Below are positions 23,351-30,095 of a DNA stretch of 52,433 nucleotides, in pieces. Below the pieces are notes generated by a model. It worked only from the letters and a program-made list of their open reading frames with translations. It did not search any database and had not been told where the DNA came from. The position numbers were made by a program, and so were the translations under genes. Origin of the DNA: Caldifarciminota bacterium (GTDB lineage: Bacteria > SDB-A); the NCBI GenBank assembly GCA_016929715.1, contig JAFGIG010000030.1, positions 1 to 52,433 of the forward strand. The letters run 5' to 3'. Each line of letters opens with the position of its first letter. Positions within the stretch are counted from its first letter, which is position 1.

Positions 23351-24454
23351 TCAGATTATTTCCGAATAAAGGACAGTGCAATTTTTTCCGCGTCTTTTGG
23401 CATCATACATGGCTTTATCAGCAAAAAACAGCAATTCATCTTCATTTTTTACGCTTGGGATTTTTGAAATTTCAGCGATTCCAAGACTTATTGTTTTCCT
23501 GAAAACTGATTTTTTTGAATTAAATTCGAGGGCGGATATTTTCTTCCTTATTTTCTCAGCTATTTTTCCCGCCTGAATTTCATCAGTGTTAGGAAGAATC
23601 ATTAAAAATTCCTCACCTCCAAATCTACCGGCGGTATCTTCTTTCCTAACTCCGTCGAAAATAATTCCGGCTATCTTTTTGAGAACTTCATCTCCTACGA
23701 GGTGGCCGTGCTCGTCGTTGCACTTTTTGAAGTCGTCTATATCTATCATTACGCAGGACAGCGGAGACTTTTGTCTTTTTGCCCTGCTGAATTCTTTTAT
23801 AAGCGAATCCATTACATAAGCTCTGTTGTGGATGCCAGTAAGTTTGTCTGTTATCGCTGTCCTGTAAAGTTCCGTATTCTTTTTTTTCAGCTCCGAGTTG
23901 AGCATTTCAATTTTTACGTTGATTTTTCTGAGTTCTTCGTTTCTCTTTTCGAGCTCATGTTTTGCGCTTTCAAGTTCTTTGTAAAGGTCTTTTATCTTTT
24001 TCAGGTGCCCGAGCTGTATCAGATTTGTTCCGTCGGACCTTTTTAGCTTTTCAATAATTGCGTCAACAATATTCGAATAAGTTGCCGGTATCGCCTCGAA
24101 TATTTTTGAAAGCTCATTTGGTTCTACAACGGCTATCTCAGCGCCGGATACCGCGTAAACGCTCGCTGTAGTTGTCTTGTCGTGTCCGAGAACGCCCAGT
24201 TCGCCGAAAATATCTCCCTCATTTCTAGTCGCTATATGCACTTTTTTGCCGCCGGGCATCTCTTTTGTGACTTTTACACTGCCCCCGAGTATAAGAAAAA
24301 GATTCCCCGCGGGTGCATTCTCCTCAATTATCAGTTGGTCCGGTTTGAAATCCCTTACAAAGAAATACTCTTTTGGTATCTTTTTTATCTCTTCGGGACT
24401 GACATTCTTGAAAAAACGATTATCCGAAAGTTTTGAAACAGTGTTTGTATCCAT
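23351..24454 (-). CDS. CNB-fold diguanylate cyclase
   Basis: A 367-residue soluble protein. Residues 10-140 are a cyclic-nucleotide-binding-type fold (ENAPAGNLFLILGGSVKV, EGDIFGELGVLG). A coiled coil spans about 151-197. The GGDEF domain is complete: MIDIDDFKKCND, active-site GGEEF at 279-283, and inhibitory-site RKED at 270-273, so it should make c-di-GMP with product inhibition. In the CNB phosphate cassette the usual Arg is Thr (KTTTAS near 93-98), so binding of cAMP is uncertain. AAGGCGG precedes the ATG. It is divergent from the tandem cyclase gene, 105 bases away. Confidence 0.88.
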   Translation of the reverse strand: MDTNTVSKLSDNRFFKNVSPEEIKKIPKEYFFVRDFKPDQLIIEENAPAGNLFLILGGSVKVTKEMPGGKKVHIATRNEGDIFGELGVLGHDKTTTASVYAVSGAEIAVVEPNELSKIFEAIPATYSNIVDAIIEKLKRSDGTNLIQLGHLKKIKDLYKELESAKHELEKRNEELRKINVKIEMLNSELKKKNTELYRTAITDKLTGIHNRAYVMDSLIKEFSRAKRQKSPLSCVMIDIDDFKKCNDEHGHLVGDEVLKKIAGIIFDGVRKEDTAGRFGGEEFLMILPNTDEIQAGKIAEKIRKKISALEFNSKKSVFRKTISLGIAEISKIPSVKNEDELLFFADKAMYDAKRRGKNCTVLYSEII

Positions 24455-24559: not shown

Positions 24560-27500
24560 ATGCGCGATTTAGTTCCCTTTTTCATAACCCAAAATTACTC
24601 AAAAGACTTAAAAGAAGGAAAGTTCAGAGCCGCTGTCCTTTTCGTGGACATAACCGGTTTTACCCAGATGACAAAAAGACTTATGGAAAAGGGGACCGAA
24701 GGCATAGAAATACTGACCCTGACAATAAACGACGTGTTTACACCTGCTATTACAGCTGTTCGGGCTCGAGGAGGATTCATCTCGGTTTTCGGCGGAGACG
24801 CTTTTTACTCTCTTTTTAACTCAAAAACAATAGGTTTCAAGCAAAACGCCCTTTCTGCAGCTCAGGAGATTACCCGTCTTTTCTCTGAGTTCGGCATAAA
24901 AAAAACAGGAGCCGGCGTTTTCGAGTTATCTGTAAAAACGGGTCTTTCCATGGGCGAAATCGAATGGGGAATTATACAAAATCCTCATCAAAACACATAT
25001 TATTTCAAAGGTGATCCGCTCGATTCAGCCTCTAATATTCAAAGGTATTGCGCCAAAAATCACGTCGTAGTAGACAAAAATTTTGTGGACTCATTCAGGA
25101 ACCGAAAGAGATTCAGTCCTGTCGGGGAAGGAGCGTTCACTCCAGATTTCACAGCAAACCCTCCGAATTCGACCACACAGTTAGTCAAACGCAGAAATGC
25201 CAAACAGAAAGAATTCATGCCGGCAACCCTCTTGGACGGCTCCGTTAAAAGTGAATTCAGAGAAGTAGTGAGTATTTTTATATCGTTTGCCGATTCCCCT
25301 CTTTTTCGAGAAAAAATATCAAAAGTCATAGACATCGTCAATGAGACAGGCGGATATTTTAACAGAGTGAGTTACGGCGACAAAGGAGGCTTCATACTAG
25401 TTTTTTACGGGGCTCCGGAAGGCAGGGAGCTTCTCTGCGAGAGAGCCGCAAAGATGGCTCTGTCAGTCGCCGCAATACCACATTTTATGATATGCGCCGG
25501 AATAACCTTCGGAATGTGTTTTTCCGGCTTCACCGGAACTGAAGAAAGAGCCGAATACACCTGCCAGGGAGAAAGAGTCAACCTCGCCGCGAGGCTGATG
25601 ACGTTAAAAAAAGACAACCTGCCTCCGGAACCGAGAATATTGACGGATTACGTGGTCAAGGAAAAACTTTCGTATTCATTCAGTTTTGAATTCGTCTGCG
25701 ATTCCGTCTTAAAAGGTTTTGACGATCCGGTTCCTGTTTTCTGTCTCAAAGGAGAAAAAACAATGAGTCAAATCCTCAGAGGCGAAGCAGTCGGCAGAGA
25801 AAGACATTTCGAAAAAGCGTCCGAGGTTTTCAACAAGACAATCGAAAGCGGGGTTTTCGGAGGAATCCTCAAGATAGAAGGCGAAGCGGGAACAGGCAAG
25901 AGCTTTTTTGTGGCGGAACTTGTCAAAAGGCATCCGTCTTTCAACTGGATTTTCATGCCCTGCGACCAGATCTTCAAATACTCTCTAAACCCCGTCAAAC
26001 ATTTTCTGAATCTTTTTTTTGGGTTTGGAGAAAAAGCGGCTGAAAATGATAAAATCTCATCGGCGAAAGAAAAACTCGTAAAGATTTTTTCCGGAGAAGA
26101 TTTTTTGGATTCAGGTGAAATTGACGTCATGCTCTTTTTCTTATGCCAGGTAGCCGGCCTGAAATACGAAGACCCTAATTTCGCATCTTTAGACCAGAAA
26201 AACAGAAAAGACATGATCCTGCATTACACTAAGCTGTTTATTAAAACCCTCTCGAAAAAAAAACCGACAATAGTTTTTTTTGACGACTTTCACTGGATAG
26301 ACGATGACACGCTTGATTTAGCAAAATCCCTCTGCCATGGCACTGAAAAAAACCCTTTAATCCTAGTTACGGCCTCCCGCAGGGCTGAATCCGGCGAAAA
26401 TATATTCCAAGACGCCCGGGTGTCTGAGATATCACTCAAACCTTTCAACCGCGAAGATTCTTTCGAACTTGCGAAAAAAATACTCAAAACCGAAGACATT
26501 CCTCAACCCACCCTCGAATTTATCTTCGATAGATCTGAGGGAAACCCATTTTACATCGAACAGACCATTCGTTTTCTTCTCGAAAACGGATATTTCGACC
26601 TTGATTTCAGGTTGAGCTCTGATGCCTCTTTCATCCCTTCCGGTATCAGGTCAATAATTATCTCAAGGTTCGACCGGTTCGGCAGAGATTTGAAAAATGC
26701 CATGATCCGCGCGTCTGTTCTCGGCAGGGAATTTTCCACAGAAATTCTCGCAAAAATGATTTCCGCTAAAAATATTGAAAGAATTCTCGGCGAAGGCGAA
26801 AAGAACGTGGTCTGGATGCCTCAGGGAACCGGACTGTATTCTTTCAGCCACGCGCTCATAAGAGATTCAGTTTATGAAATGCAGTTAAAAAGCGAGCTGA
26901 GAATACTTCACCGCGACGCTGCGAGAGCCTACGAAAATCTGCCTGAGGACTACAAAGAAAAAAACACGGGAATTATAGCCTTTCACTATGATTTGTCAGA
27001 CGACAAGGATAAGGCTCCTGTCTATCTTAAAAAAGCTTTTCTTCTCGCTCAAAAATCCTTTTCAACCATAGATTCTCTGCGGTTTTGCGAAGCTCTCGAC
27101 AAATACTTGGAGCAGGGAAAAGAAAAACTCGAAAACTCTATAAAGAGAATTCGCCTGATTTCCGTCACGGGAAAGCTTGAAAAAGCCGAAGAGATAGCCC
27201 AAAAAACCCTCGCAGACTGCGAAGACGAAATCTCCCTTGCCGCAGAATGTCTTATCAGCCTTTGCGAAATCACTTTGAAACTTTTCAAAATGGACAAAAA
27301 TCTCGAATACCTTAAAAAACTCGATGTTCTTTCGGAAAAGCTCGAAGACAAAAAAATAAGAACTGAACTTTTCAAGCTCTATGGATTTTACTGGCACAGC
27401 CATGAAGATGAAAAAAAGGCTGTTGTATATTTCCAAAAAGCCCTGAATCTGACAAGAATCACAAAAGACAAAAAAGCCGAAGCAAAATGCCTTTCAGATA

Positions 27501-28369
27501 TTTCTGTTTTCTGCGGACGCGAAATAGGCTTGGAAAAAGTCCTCGATTACCTCTTTGAAGCCCTTAAAATAGCTGAGGAAACAGGCGATTTGCGAACTCT
27601 TGAGATTATTTTATCCAACTTAGGTCTCAGCTACGCTGAAATATACCTCGATATAGAGAACTCATTCATTTACTATCAGAAAGGAATCGAAATATGCCGC
27701 AGGACAGGAAATATATCTGCCCTAATGAATAATCTCAACAATTTAGCTACTATCTATCTCGCAAAAGGGGAGAAAAAAACAGCCGAAGAACTTTTGAAAA
27801 CTTCTCTGGACATGGCCGCCGAAAGCGGTCATAAACTTGCAACTGTAAACGCATACTGTAACCTTTCTGTTTTTTACAGAAATTTAAGAAAATTCCGAAG
27901 TGCACTCGACTGCATAAAAAGAGCTGAAAAAATCATCGAAAACACGCCTATGAAAGAATACTTGTTGGCGGTAAAAAAAGACAGGTTCGAGATATATGCC
28001 TATACGAAAGACGCTTTGATGGCAAAAAATGCCCTCGATGATATAAATTCACTTCACAGGAAAATAAACGGGGGGGAAGACCTTCCTGATCTCGTTTTCT
28101 ACGAATTGAGAGTAAAATTTCTCCAAACAGGGGATAAAAAGATACTGACTGAGATGGAAAAAGAAGCTGAAAAAACACCTCTAAAAAGCAGGAAAGCCCA
28201 CACCCATTATATTATCTGGAAGACTTCAGATTCCCCTGAAAGCGCCGAGATTTCTCTCAATCTTTACAGGGAACTCATCCAAGAACCTCCAAAGGATTTT
28301 AAGGACATCTACTGGGTCATAAGAAAAAAAGAACTCGAGAATTATTTCAGGGACATGCGGGAATCCTGA
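24560..28369 (+). CDS. Tandem class III cyclase-AAA ATPase-TPR protein (soluble adenylyl cyclase-like)
   Basis: A 1269-residue cytoplasmic protein. C1 (about 20-190) has metal-binding Asp30 in FVDITGF and Asp80 in FGGDAF, but its N-x3-R motif is lost (LDSASNIQ). C2 (about 230-395) lacks the first metal Asp (SIFISF), but has Lys275 in GDKGGF, Thr334 in EYTCQG, Asn341 and Arg345 in VNLAARL. Together they can build one active site with adenine-type determinants, plus one pseudo-site. A P-loop near 440 (GEAGTGKS) and Walker B near 573 (VFFDDFHWIDDD) mark a STAND-type ATPase, then TPRs from about 780 to the end. The same order is found in animal ADCY10. It probably makes cAMP; no Shine-Dalgarno precedes the ATG. 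Confidence 0.85.
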   Translation: MRDLVPFFITQNYSKDLKEGKFRAAVLFVDITGFTQMTKRLMEKGTEGIEILTLTINDVFTPAITAVRARGGFISVFGGDAFYSLFNSKTIGFKQNALSAAQEITRLFSEFGIKKTGAGVFELSVKTGLSMGEIEWGIIQNPHQNTYYFKGDPLDSASNIQRYCAKNHVVVDKNFVDSFRNRKRFSPVGEGAFTPDFTANPPNSTTQLVKRRNAKQKEFMPATLLDGSVKSEFREVVSIFISFADSPLFREKISKVIDIVNETGGYFNRVSYGDKGGFILVFYGAPEGRELLCERAAKMALSVAAIPHFMICAGITFGMCFSGFTGTEERAEYTCQGERVNLAARLMTLKKDNLPPEPRILTDYVVKEKLSYSFSFEFVCDSVLKGFDDPVPVFCLKGEKTMSQILRGEAVGRERHFEKASEVFNKTIESGVFGGILKIEGEAGTGKSFFVAELVKRHPSFNWIFMPCDQIFKYSLNPVKHFLNLFFGFGEKAAENDKISSAKEKLVKIFSGEDFLDSGEIDVMLFFLCQVAGLKYEDPNFASLDQKNRKDMILHYTKLFIKTLSKKKPTIVFFDDFHWIDDDTLDLAKSLCHGTEKNPLILVTASRRAESGENIFQDARVSEISLKPFNREDSFELAKKILKTEDIPQPTLEFIFDRSEGNPFYIEQTIRFLLENGYFDLDFRLSSDASFIPSGIRSIIISRFDRFGRDLKNAMIRASVLGREFSTEILAKMISAKNIERILGEGEKNVVWMPQGTGLYSFSHALIRDSVYEMQLKSELRILHRDAARAYENLPEDYKEKNTGIIAFHYDLSDDKDKAPVYLKKAFLLAQKSFSTIDSLRFCEALDKYLEQGKEKLENSIKRIRLISVTGKLEKAEEIAQKTLADCEDEISLAAECLISLCEITLKLFKMDKNLEYLKKLDVLSEKLEDKKIRTELFKLYGFYWHSHEDEKKAVVYFQKALNLTRITKDKKAEAKCLSDISVFCGREIGLEKVLDYLFEALKIAEETGDLRTLEIILSNLGLSYAEIYLDIENSFIYYQKGIEICRRTGNISALMNNLNNLATIYLAKGEKKTAEELLKTSLDMAAESGHKLATVNAYCNLSVFYRNLRKFRSALDCIKRAEKIIENTPMKEYLLAVKKDRFEIYAYTKDALMAKNALDDINSLHRKINGGEDLPDLVFYELRVKFLQTGDKKILTEMEKEAEKTPLKSRKAHTHYIIWKTSDSPESAEISLNLYRELIQEPPKDFKDIYWVIRKKELENYFRDMRES

Positions 28370-30095
28370 AAGTGAAAACGCTCCCCTCGTTTGTTTTTGA
28401 AAACACGCCTATTTCTCCTCCGTGAAGCTCTATTAGTCTTTTGACTATGGAAAGCCCGAGTCCTGTTGTCTGTTCTCCTTCCGTCCCCTCTCTTTTCGCC
28501 TCCGTGAATTTATCGAATATTTTAGGCTTCATTTCTTCCGGAATTCCAATTCCGCTATCTTCCACGGACACGACGGCATATAGGATATCCCCCGACAATT
28601 CCCTTTTGTGTGTTATTGAAATCCTGCCGCCTCTTGGCGTGAATTTGAGGGCGTTAGAAAAAAGATTCTGCATTATCTGCCAGAATCTGTTGAAATCAAC
28701 CATGCAAATACAGTTCCCCCCTTCGTTGCTCAATTCGAAATTCACGCCTTTTTTCCCTGAAAGCCTCCTGAAATCGCCGGCAAATTCGGAGATGAGATCG
28801 GCTATGTTCATCTCCGCAAGTTCGAGCCTAAAATCTTCGCTCTCGATTTTGTTTATCTCGAGAATGTCTTCAACGAGAACGAGAGCCCTTTGGACGTAAT
28901 GCTTTATGACTTCAAGAGTTTCTTCTGCCTCTGCGTTCAGATTCTGCAGATGCGCAAGCATTTGGGACAACGGTATAATCGAACCTATCGTTCCCTTGAG
29001 GTCGTGGGAAACAACTCTCATTATAGCGTCTTTGGACTTGTTCAGCTCCGTCAGTTCTTCGTTTTTTTCGGCAAGTTCGGCGTTTTGTTTTTCTATCATC
29101 ATATTAGCACCGGCAAGTTCTTCGTTTTTCATCCTGTAAATTTCAGTTTCTCTTTCTCTGAGCTTGACCTCGAAACGGGCGTCCATTTCTGCGATTCTCG
29201 ATGTTTTTTCTTCATTGAAAATAACGTCCATCTTCTCGGCGTATATCCGGCTGAAATAAAGAGCTTTCTGATATTCTTCTTTTTCTTCGTATAGCTCTGA
29301 TAAGGTTTTTGCAGCGTTCATCTGACCTAAATTATTGTCAGTCGAGAAATATATTTCAAAAGCCTCCCTGACATATTCAAGGGATTTCTCAGTATCTCCC
29401 TTCTCTTTCATTATCAGTCCAAAGTTGAAAAGAGGCGGAGCCTCACCGTTCCTGTCACCTATTTCACGCTTCAAAGCAATAGCTTTTTCGTAATATGAAA
29501 GGGCTTCCTCCAAAGCGCCTGTCTCCCTGTAAACCTCGCCGATGTTGTTCAGTATAAAAGACAATGGCCTTTTGTTTCCGGCGCTTTCGGCGGCTTTTTT
29601 CGCCCTTTCGAGGTATTCAAGGCTTTTCGCGAAGTCTCCTAAACGCCTGTAGACGTTTGCGATATTGTTACAGCTCTGCTGTATGAACTTCTGCAGGCCT
29701 TCCTTTTCCCTTATCTCGAGAGATTTTTTCATATAGAAAAGGGCTTTTTCGGTTAGGTTCATTTTGGCAAATACAACTCCCATGCCTTCGTATGAACTCG
29801 TAAGCCTGTCCGGGTCTGTCTCTGATGACGCCACTTTCTGAAAATATTCTATCGCCTTATCGAAGTCGGACATGTGAAAACACAAAAACCCCAAGCGGAG
29901 GAAGGCTCTGTTTTTAAGGTCTTCGATACTGTTTTTTTCGCATATCTCCAGCGCCGTCAAAGCGCAGTTGAATGAAGGGACGGTTTCCGAAGCTTCAAAA
30001 AATTCTTTTGCTTTTTCAAGGAGATATGTGGCTTTTTCTCTGTCAGTCGAAAGGACGTCCGCTTCGCTGAAAACGATATTTGTTTTATCGGCCAT
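28347..30095 (-). CDS. Soluble TPR sensor histidine kinase
   Basis: A 582-residue cytoplasmic kinase. Residues about 20-300 are TPR units (GDFAKSLEYLERAKKA, GALEEALSYYEKAIAL), 300-355 a coiled coil. The H-box VVSHDLKG carries the phosphoacceptor near His364. N-box QNLFSNALKFT, G1 DSGIGIP, F-box IFDKF and G2 TTGLGLSIVKRL are intact, so it should be active. There is no membrane helix, so it senses an internal partner. The 3' end overlaps the convergent cyclase gene by 23 bases. No cognate response regulator is adjacent; both neighbours share TPR regions, which may be coincidental. Confidence 0.92.
   Translation of the reverse strand: MADKTNIVFSEADVLSTDREKATYLLEKAKEFFEASETVPSFNCALTALEICEKNSIEDLKNRAFLRLGFLCFHMSDFDKAIEYFQKVASSETDPDRLTSSYEGMGVVFAKMNLTEKALFYMKKSLEIREKEGLQKFIQQSCNNIANVYRRLGDFAKSLEYLERAKKAAESAGNKRPLSFILNNIGEVYRETGALEEALSYYEKAIALKREIGDRNGEAPPLFNFGLIMKEKGDTEKSLEYVREAFEIYFSTDNNLGQMNAAKTLSELYEEKEEYQKALYFSRIYAEKMDVIFNEEKTSRIAEMDARFEVKLRERETEIYRMKNEELAGANMMIEKQNAELAEKNEELTELNKSKDAIMRVVSHDLKGTIGSIIPLSQMLAHLQNLNAEAEETLEVIKHYVQRALVLVEDILEINKIESEDFRLELAEMNIADLISEFAGDFRRLSGKKGVNFELSNEGGNCICMVDFNRFWQIMQNLFSNALKFTPRGGRISITHKRELSGDILYAVVSVEDSGIGIPEEMKPKIFDKFTEAKREGTEGEQTTGLGLSIVKRLIELHGGEIGVFSKTNEGSVFTFRIPACP

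What the first reader, a model, noticed from the sequence alone, without database searches (positions are those of the whole stretch)
24560..28369. Bacterial protein with the full domain plan and split active site of soluble adenylyl cyclase
The order C1-C2-AAA-TPR matches animal ADCY10. The sequence shows complementary loss of motifs. C1 keeps both metal aspartates (30, 80) but lost the N-x3-R pair. C2 lost the metal Asp but keeps Asn341/Arg345 and the Lys275/Thr334 pair expected for adenine. This predicts one active and one pseudo-site within a single chain, as in sAC, where the pseudo-site binds bicarbonate. The ATPase and TPR parts suggest control by a partner protein.
Basis: partly seen in the sequence, partly recalled or inferred. 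Interest (0 to 1): 0.75.

Follow-up and report, generated by a model that had tools for sequence, protein, structure and literature searches.

The report
STAND-gated bacterial soluble adenylyl cyclase
This bacterial gene encodes a relative of the animal enzyme soluble adenylyl cyclase: a predicted one-site cAMP maker joined to a likely NLR-type molecular switch, without the two residues that bind bicarbonate in mammals, and it is one of 14 such genes in a 2-million-base genome.

The parts
24560..28369 (+). 1269-aa tandem cyclase - STAND ATPase - TPR protein
   Evidence: ORF; Pfam; PDB sequence search
24614..25153 (+). C1 cyclase domain (residues 19-198), supplies both metal aspartates
   Evidence: Pfam; model; alignment
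24647..24649 (+). Asp30, first metal Asp (sAC Asp47)
   Evidence: alignment; D in 53 of 56 family rows
24785..24787 (+). Val76, place of sAC Lys95 (bicarbonate): lost
   Evidence: function of K95 from PMC12867704 (passages)
24797..24799 (+). Asp80, second metal Asp (sAC Asp99)
   Evidence: D in 56 of 56 family rows
25031..25033 (+). Ser158, place of sAC Arg176 (bicarbonate switch): lost
   Evidence: 0 of 56 family rows basic here
25244..25762 (+). C2 cyclase domain (residues 229-401), supplies Thr, Asn and Arg of the site
25364..25366 (+). Arg269, place of the base-recognising sAC Lys334
   Evidence: K or R in 37 of 56 family rows
25559..25594 (+). Thr334, Asn341, Arg345 (sAC Thr405, Asn412, Arg416)
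25790..26368 (+). AAA_16 / STAND nucleotide-binding domain (residues 411-603)
   Evidence: Pfam; model and fold searches
25880..25903 (+). Walker A GEAGTGKS (441-448)
   Evidence: its glycines and Lys invariant in 41 rows
26270..26296 (+). Walker B IVFFDDFHW (571-579)
27011..28366 (+). TPR superhelix (about residues 818-1268), predicted sensor
   Evidence: secondary structure; Pfam
23351..24454 (-). Divergent neighbour: cNMP-binding domain + GGDEF (GGEEF and RxxD present; phosphate-binding Arg replaced by Thr)
   Evidence: Pfam
28347..30095 (-). Convergent neighbour overlapping by 23 bases: TPR + histidine kinase
   Evidence: Pfam; beside the cyclase in all four genomes of the family

Best explanation
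This gene encodes a class III cyclase of the soluble adenylyl cyclase type that likely makes cAMP at one composite site and is predicted to be switched by its own STAND ATPase-TPR half rather than by bicarbonate. Shown by sequence: C1 carries the two metal aspartates (D30, D80), C2 carries T334, N341 and R345, each domain lacks the other's set, and both bicarbonate residues are replaced (V76, S158). Predicted by modelling: C1 and C2 pair head to tail like human sAC, leaving one complete site and one pseudo-site; the rest is a P-loop STAND module (GRE start, Walker A, DD Walker B, GNP) followed by a long TPR superhelix, as in MalT and Apaf-1. Inferred: in the resting, ADP-bound form the module restrains the cyclase; a ligand or partner protein bound by the TPRs lets ADP be exchanged for ATP, the STAND part opens or oligomerises, and the cyclase core is freed to turn ATP into cAMP (Thr334 would favour adenine). 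Inferred: the signal would be read by cyclic-nucleotide-binding proteins; the genome has five such matches, four of which keep the phosphate-binding arginine. The flanking cNMP-GGDEF protein looks like an ancestral reader whose arginine was lost in this genus. The gene is one of 14 such paralogues, which would form a set of parallel sensors sharing one output.
Confidence: 0.7

Rival explanations
1. A bicarbonate sensor as in mammalian sAC: bicarbonate binds the pseudo-site and frees Asp80 for catalysis.
For: Same fold and same two-site geometry in the model; single-domain structures among the matches include CyaC, from a group of enzymes that bicarbonate stimulates according to PMC3918592 (passage).
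Against: Both residues that hold bicarbonate in human sAC are replaced here; none of 56 genome rows and none of 113 database rows has both. PMC12867704 (passages) reports that sea urchin and salmon sAC, each lacking one of the two, do not respond to bicarbonate but to pH; control by pH is not excluded here.
Confidence: 0.06
2. A pseudo-cyclase: the pair binds ATP without cyclising it and serves as a nucleotide-sensing scaffold for the STAND half.
Against: All four metal and phosphate residues are kept in this protein and invariant in its six-row set of close relatives.
Confidence: 0.17
3. An active cyclase with another product (cGMP or a pyrimidine cNMP).
For: Base-contact residues vary: position 269 is Glu in 18 of 113 database rows; PADLOC gives weak matches to Pycsar cyclases, best E 1.4e-6.
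Against: Thr at 334 with a basic residue at 269 resembles the Lys/Thr pair of sAC rather than the Glu-based pair of guanylyl cyclases (recalled).
Confidence: 0.12
4. Part of an anti-phage defence system of the Pycsar or Avs type, with a phage protein sensed by the TPRs and a cNMP-binding effector next door.
For: STAND-TPR architecture; Avs3 appears among Foldseek rows, weakly (TM 0.18); the neighbour's cNMP-binding part matches PycTIR (E 1.8e-11).
Against: The neighbour's effector half is a GGDEF diguanylate cyclase with intact motif, not a TIR or membrane domain; 13 of 14 paralogues group with a gene of another species, which is unlike mobile defence islands; the 20 neighbouring proteins scanned with Pfam are housekeeping, secretion or signalling proteins by domain (PADLOC was run only on three window proteins).
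Confidence: 0.05

Closest known systems
Soluble adenylyl cyclase, ADCY10 (human; PDB 4clf and others)
   Same: C1-C2 tandem, head-to-tail pairing in the model, metals from C1, Thr/Asn/Arg from C2; C1 and C2 each group with their sAC counterparts; sACfl also has a P-loop after C2 (passage)
   Different: K95/R176 replaced by V76/S158, K334 by R269; about 24% identity in the structural alignment; a STAND-TPR half is modelled here, while that part of sACfl is not characterised
Bacterial class 3 cyclase / predicted ATPase / TPR proteins (253 hits)
   Same: Tandem cyclase with AAA and mostly TPR domains; same split site in 113 of 113 rows examined
   Different: Lys at the K95 place in 47 of 113 rows; here Val
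CyaC of S. platensis (1wc0, 1wc1)
   Different: The solved chains are single catalytic domains, not a tandem; bicarbonate-stimulated per PMC3918592 (passage)
STAND proteins: 8bob_C (MalT by recall; title: negative regulation of the maltose system), 6mfv (STAND with TPR sensor), Apaf-1 (3shf, 3sfz)
   Same: STAND nucleotide-binding module followed by a superhelical or repeat sensor
   Different: Output domain here is a tandem cyclase (outputs of the others recalled: DNA-binding, caspase recruitment)
TOMM system kinase/cyclase fusion (TIGR03903)
   Same: Stretch 392-856 matches (150 bits)
   Different: Far below its cut-off (705.75 bits); the match covers only the middle of the protein
6yii, class III cyclase-like ATP-binding protein of P. 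aeruginosa
   Different: Its title calls it an ATP-binding protein; here the catalytic set is kept

Membership tests
sAC-type tandem class III cyclase | Two fused class III domains on one chain | tested here: met
sAC-type tandem class III cyclase | Head-to-tail C1-C2 pairing as in sAC | tested here: met
sAC-type tandem class III cyclase | One split site: both metal Asp in C1, Asn/Arg in C2 | tested here: met
sAC-type tandem class III cyclase | Base recognition by Lys334 and Thr405 | tested here: inconclusive
   Thr kept (334), Lys replaced by Arg269
sAC-type tandem class III cyclase | Common origin of the tandem with ADCY10 | tested here: met
   short sAC fragments on long branches, bootstrap not settled, only five single-domain rows, all of this genome
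sAC-type tandem class III cyclase | Produces cAMP from ATP | not testable with these tools
   needs assay
Bicarbonate-regulated sAC | Lys95 and Arg176 pair | tested here: not met
   V76 and S158
STAND ATPase | P-loop, DD Walker B, GxP and hhGRE motifs | tested here: met
   GRE at 412-414, GEAGTGKS 441-448, FFDDFHW 573-579, GNP 661-663; (motif names recalled)
STAND ATPase | STAND fold with superhelical sensor | tested here: met
STAND ATPase | Nucleotide-dependent oligomerisation and output control | not testable with these tools
   needs biochemistry
Pycsar defence system | PycC cyclase with a TIR or membrane effector | tested here: not met
   weak PycC match only (E 1.4e-6); the neighbour is cNMP-GGDEF

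The most novel reading that the evidence does not exclude
The 14 tandem proteins (13 to 15 in three relatives) are an NLR-like intracellular receptor array in a small-genome bacterium: diverged STAND-TPR sensors, each for its own ligand or partner, all reporting through one shared cAMP pool read by a handful of cNMP-binding proteins, with some receptors kept after their cyclase died. The human sAC regulatory half would then be a surviving single copy of such a receptor.
Probability: 0.3. Interest if true: 0.72.

Novelty: new member of a known kind. Interest (0 to 1): 0.47.

Why it matters
The regulatory domains of full-length sAC, an enzyme pursued as a contraceptive target, are described as not yet functionally characterised, and heterologously expressed human sACfl came as a complex with Hsp70 (PMC12802110, passages). 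Bacterial relatives that likely share the tandem by descent and carry a recognisable STAND-TPR module would offer tractable models for how that half gates the cyclase. That no row examined has the K95/R176 pair suggests that bicarbonate control is not the ancestral mode of the family, in line with the 2026 report of pH control in non-mammalian sAC (PMC12867704, passages). A set of 14 such proteins with five cNMP-binding matches in a 2-Mb genome raises the question of how one messenger serves so many sensors.

Tried and rejected
Bicarbonate pseudo-site: rejected, both residues replaced. Lys275 as base lysine: rejected. Independent sAC-like tandem by convergence: not supported; the domain tree and AU test favour one origin, with the cautions that the sAC rows are short fragments on long branches, that only five single-domain cyclases, all of this genome, stand outside, and that the groups tested were named after seeing the tree. 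A family-only expansion: I first took the expansion as special to this family, but full scoring of 25 genomes gave 15 and 14 matches in G108 and G244 and 9 each in G106 and G243 (matches at E <= 1e-35, split or partial ones included, so G000-G003 read 14, 17, 14 and 18 there). The wide search (386 genomes) scored at most 4 candidates a genome, so its counts are lower bounds; only presence (42 of 386) is used, and some of those matches cover one domain only. I assumed that L057's neighbour was a TPR-histidine kinase; Pfam showed a T2SSE/MshEN ATPase. PADLOC and NCBIfam gave only weak or below-cut-off matches. Literature: WOR-3 with adenylate cyclase, 0 papers; adenylyl cyclase with STAND, TPR, bacteria and class III, 0; soluble adenylyl cyclase with tetratricopeptide, bacterial and AAA, 0; the listings showed no title on this family. 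All in the open-licence library only. No structure coordinates were available to me, so no distances in the site were measured.

Rows dropped before counts: 62 ORFs passed the coverage filter; I left out five of G000 (L062, L063, L064, single cyclase-AAA-TPR; L065 4496-7795, a very diverged tandem; L065 13989-16400, CHASE2-cyclase) and one of G001 (L076 6299-6931), leaving 56; six fragments, at contig ends or in short frames, were shown but not counted. Of 253 database hits only the 120 listed were examined; seven were left out as copies of genome rows. The 129-row tree used hits up to P0075 without P0001, P0003, P0004 and P0005. A4 left out nine diverged proteins and six cut at contig ends. 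The domain tree used 30 of the tandem proteins.

Full report
What is there. The ORF at 24560-28369 on the + strand is 1269 aa without interruption. Pfam gives Guanylate_cyc at 24-180, AAA_16 at 411-603 and TPR near the C-terminus. Against the PDB by sequence the best hit is human ADCY10 (4clf, E 8.9e-12), with separate alignments for C1 (22-176 on 39-194) and C2 (247-349 on 312-420). The start is supported by the M-x-x-L-x-P-x-F-I start that most paralogues share.

Active site. In the sAC alignment D30 and D80 match Asp47 and Asp99; T334, N341 and R345 match Thr405, Asn412 and Arg416; K126 matches Lys144 (functions from Table 1 of PMC12867704 seen as a passage, and for Thr405 from PMC12250328, passage). 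sAC Lys95 and Arg176, which hold bicarbonate, match Val76 and Ser158. By spacing from the conserved glycine, C1 has D155 and N159 where C2 has its Asn and Arg, and C2 has no Asp at the metal places.

Family in this genome. A search of the 1.98-Mb genome (142 contigs, 94.67% complete) found 31 matching stretches. I read out 14 full tandem proteins including this one, the other 13 being 22 to 33% identical to it over C1-C2, a fifteenth that is very diverged (L065 4496-7795), three single-cyclase STAND-TPR proteins (L062-L064) and four other proteins with a class III domain or match (one in L065, two in L066, one in L067). The same genus and family hold 13 (G001), 14 (G002) and 15 (G003) near-complete ones plus fragments. 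13 of the 14 group with a gene of another of these genomes at SH-aLRT 95 or more, so the set is old. Large sets are also present in G108 (15 matches), G244 (14), G106 (9) and G243 (9), and 42 of 386 sampled genomes, this family included, have at least one match at E <= 1e-35, counts there being capped.

State of the sites. Over 56 rows: D30 53, D80 56, N341 53, R345 50, Lys or Arg at 269 37, Thr or Ser at 334 46; basic at 76 4, basic at 158 none, both none. All four metal/phosphate residues in 47 of 56, all six in 32 of 56 (7 of 14 here, 7 of 13, 8 of 14, 10 of 15). Group L058/L080/L096 has lost D30 and R345 in three species: kept but presumably dead cyclases. Among 113 database rows the four residues are complete in 113, position 76 is Lys in 47 and Arg in 4, position 158 is Arg in 2, both basic in none. 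The Lys95 equivalent is thus common in bacterial relatives, while the Lys/Arg pair was not seen.

Origin. In a tree of 67 single domains, the 30 bacterial C1s with sAC C1 form one group (100/98), the 30 C2s with sAC C2 another (98/85), and five single-domain cyclases of this genome lie outside both. Forcing the two sAC domains together is rejected (p 0.004), as is placing sAC C2 with the bacterial C1s (p 0.005). The sAC rows are short fragments on long branches, the bootstrap had not settled and the groups were named after the tree was seen, so I treat a shared tandem as likely, not proven.

Organism. Two of the database hits named candidate division WOR-3 (P0003, P0004) lie on contigs whose lengths equal those of G002 and G001 contigs that carry the same genes, so this family is likely WOR-3; G003 contigs match records titled Desulfuromonas sp. 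SDB in length.

Neighbourhood. Upstream and divergent, 105 bases away, is a cNMP-binding + GGDEF protein; downstream and convergent, overlapping by 23 bases, a TPR-histidine kinase. All three lie on one contig in G002; in G001 and G003 the cyclase and kinase are together and the cNMP-GGDEF gene begins within about 85 and 75 bases of the end of another contig, so linkage there is likely but not shown. The GGDEF protein has GGEEF and an RxxD inhibition site. Its phosphate-binding Arg is Thr in this genus, but Arg in G003 and in a cNMP-binding gene that abuts a related cyclase in Candidatus Sabulitectum. Each of the four genomes has five cNMP-binding matches; in this genome four keep the Arg. A cAMP-to-c-di-GMP relay is thus likely ancestral here and doubtful today.

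Mechanism. Likely steps: TPRs bind a ligand or partner (inferred), the STAND module exchanges ADP for ATP and changes shape or oligomerises (inferred from MalT and Apaf-1, recalled), the cyclase core, held low at rest, becomes active (inferred; sACt without the presumptive autoinhibitory domain has higher specific activity than sACfl, PMC12802110, passage), and cAMP is made (predicted from the site).

Known or new. Bacterial sAC with a P-loop NTPase domain is in print: PMC6660944 (passage) says so and cites Roelofs and Van Haastert 2002 and Kobayashi et al. 2004, which I saw only as references (the second is not held). The loss of the bicarbonate residues has a parallel in non-mammalian sAC (PMC12867704, passages). 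One search for WOR-3 with adenylate cyclase found no paper, and two for the architecture found none. The protein is a new member of a known kind; the size and age of the repertoire and its decayed members are the less expected part.

Noticed in passing
L058 5086-8799 -, L080 1310-5029 -, L096 1304-5029 +: Grouped tandem cyclases that lost D30 and R345 yet are found in three species; L058 keeps its P-loop (the other two not checked): likely conserved pseudo-cyclases.
   Followed up: partly
P0017, P0024, P0027, P0030, P0036 and others: 18 of 113 tandem relatives have Glu at the base-recognition place, in the five named with Ala at the Thr place; possibly a guanylyl or other specificity.
   Followed up: no
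window 23351-24454: cNMP-GGDEF protein whose phosphate-binding Arg became Thr in the genus while GGEEF and RxxD are kept; Arg is present in G003 (L128).
   Followed up: partly
L138 11145-11900: In Candidatus Sabulitectum a cNMP-binding gene with intact phosphate cassette abuts a tandem cyclase gene tail to tail.
   Followed up: partly
L136, L137 (LKUE01000277.1, LKUE01000418.1): Contigs titled Desulfuromonas sp. SDB equal G003 contigs in length, and G003 falls in the same family as genomes that seem to be candidate division WOR-3; the title may be wrong.
   Followed up: no
L055 5523-13189; L052 4036-11744: Two pairs of tandem cyclase genes lie head to tail with overlapping ends; the L055 pair fall in neighbouring groups of the tree, the L052 pair do not.
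   Followed up: partly
L057 9113-12175: Beside another paralogue: a T2SSE/MshEN ATPase gene and a small cNMP-binding protein with intact arginine.
   Followed up: partly
L083 (G001:C79): A lone C1 fragment in a 167-aa frame with stops just beyond; a likely decayed copy.
   Followed up: no
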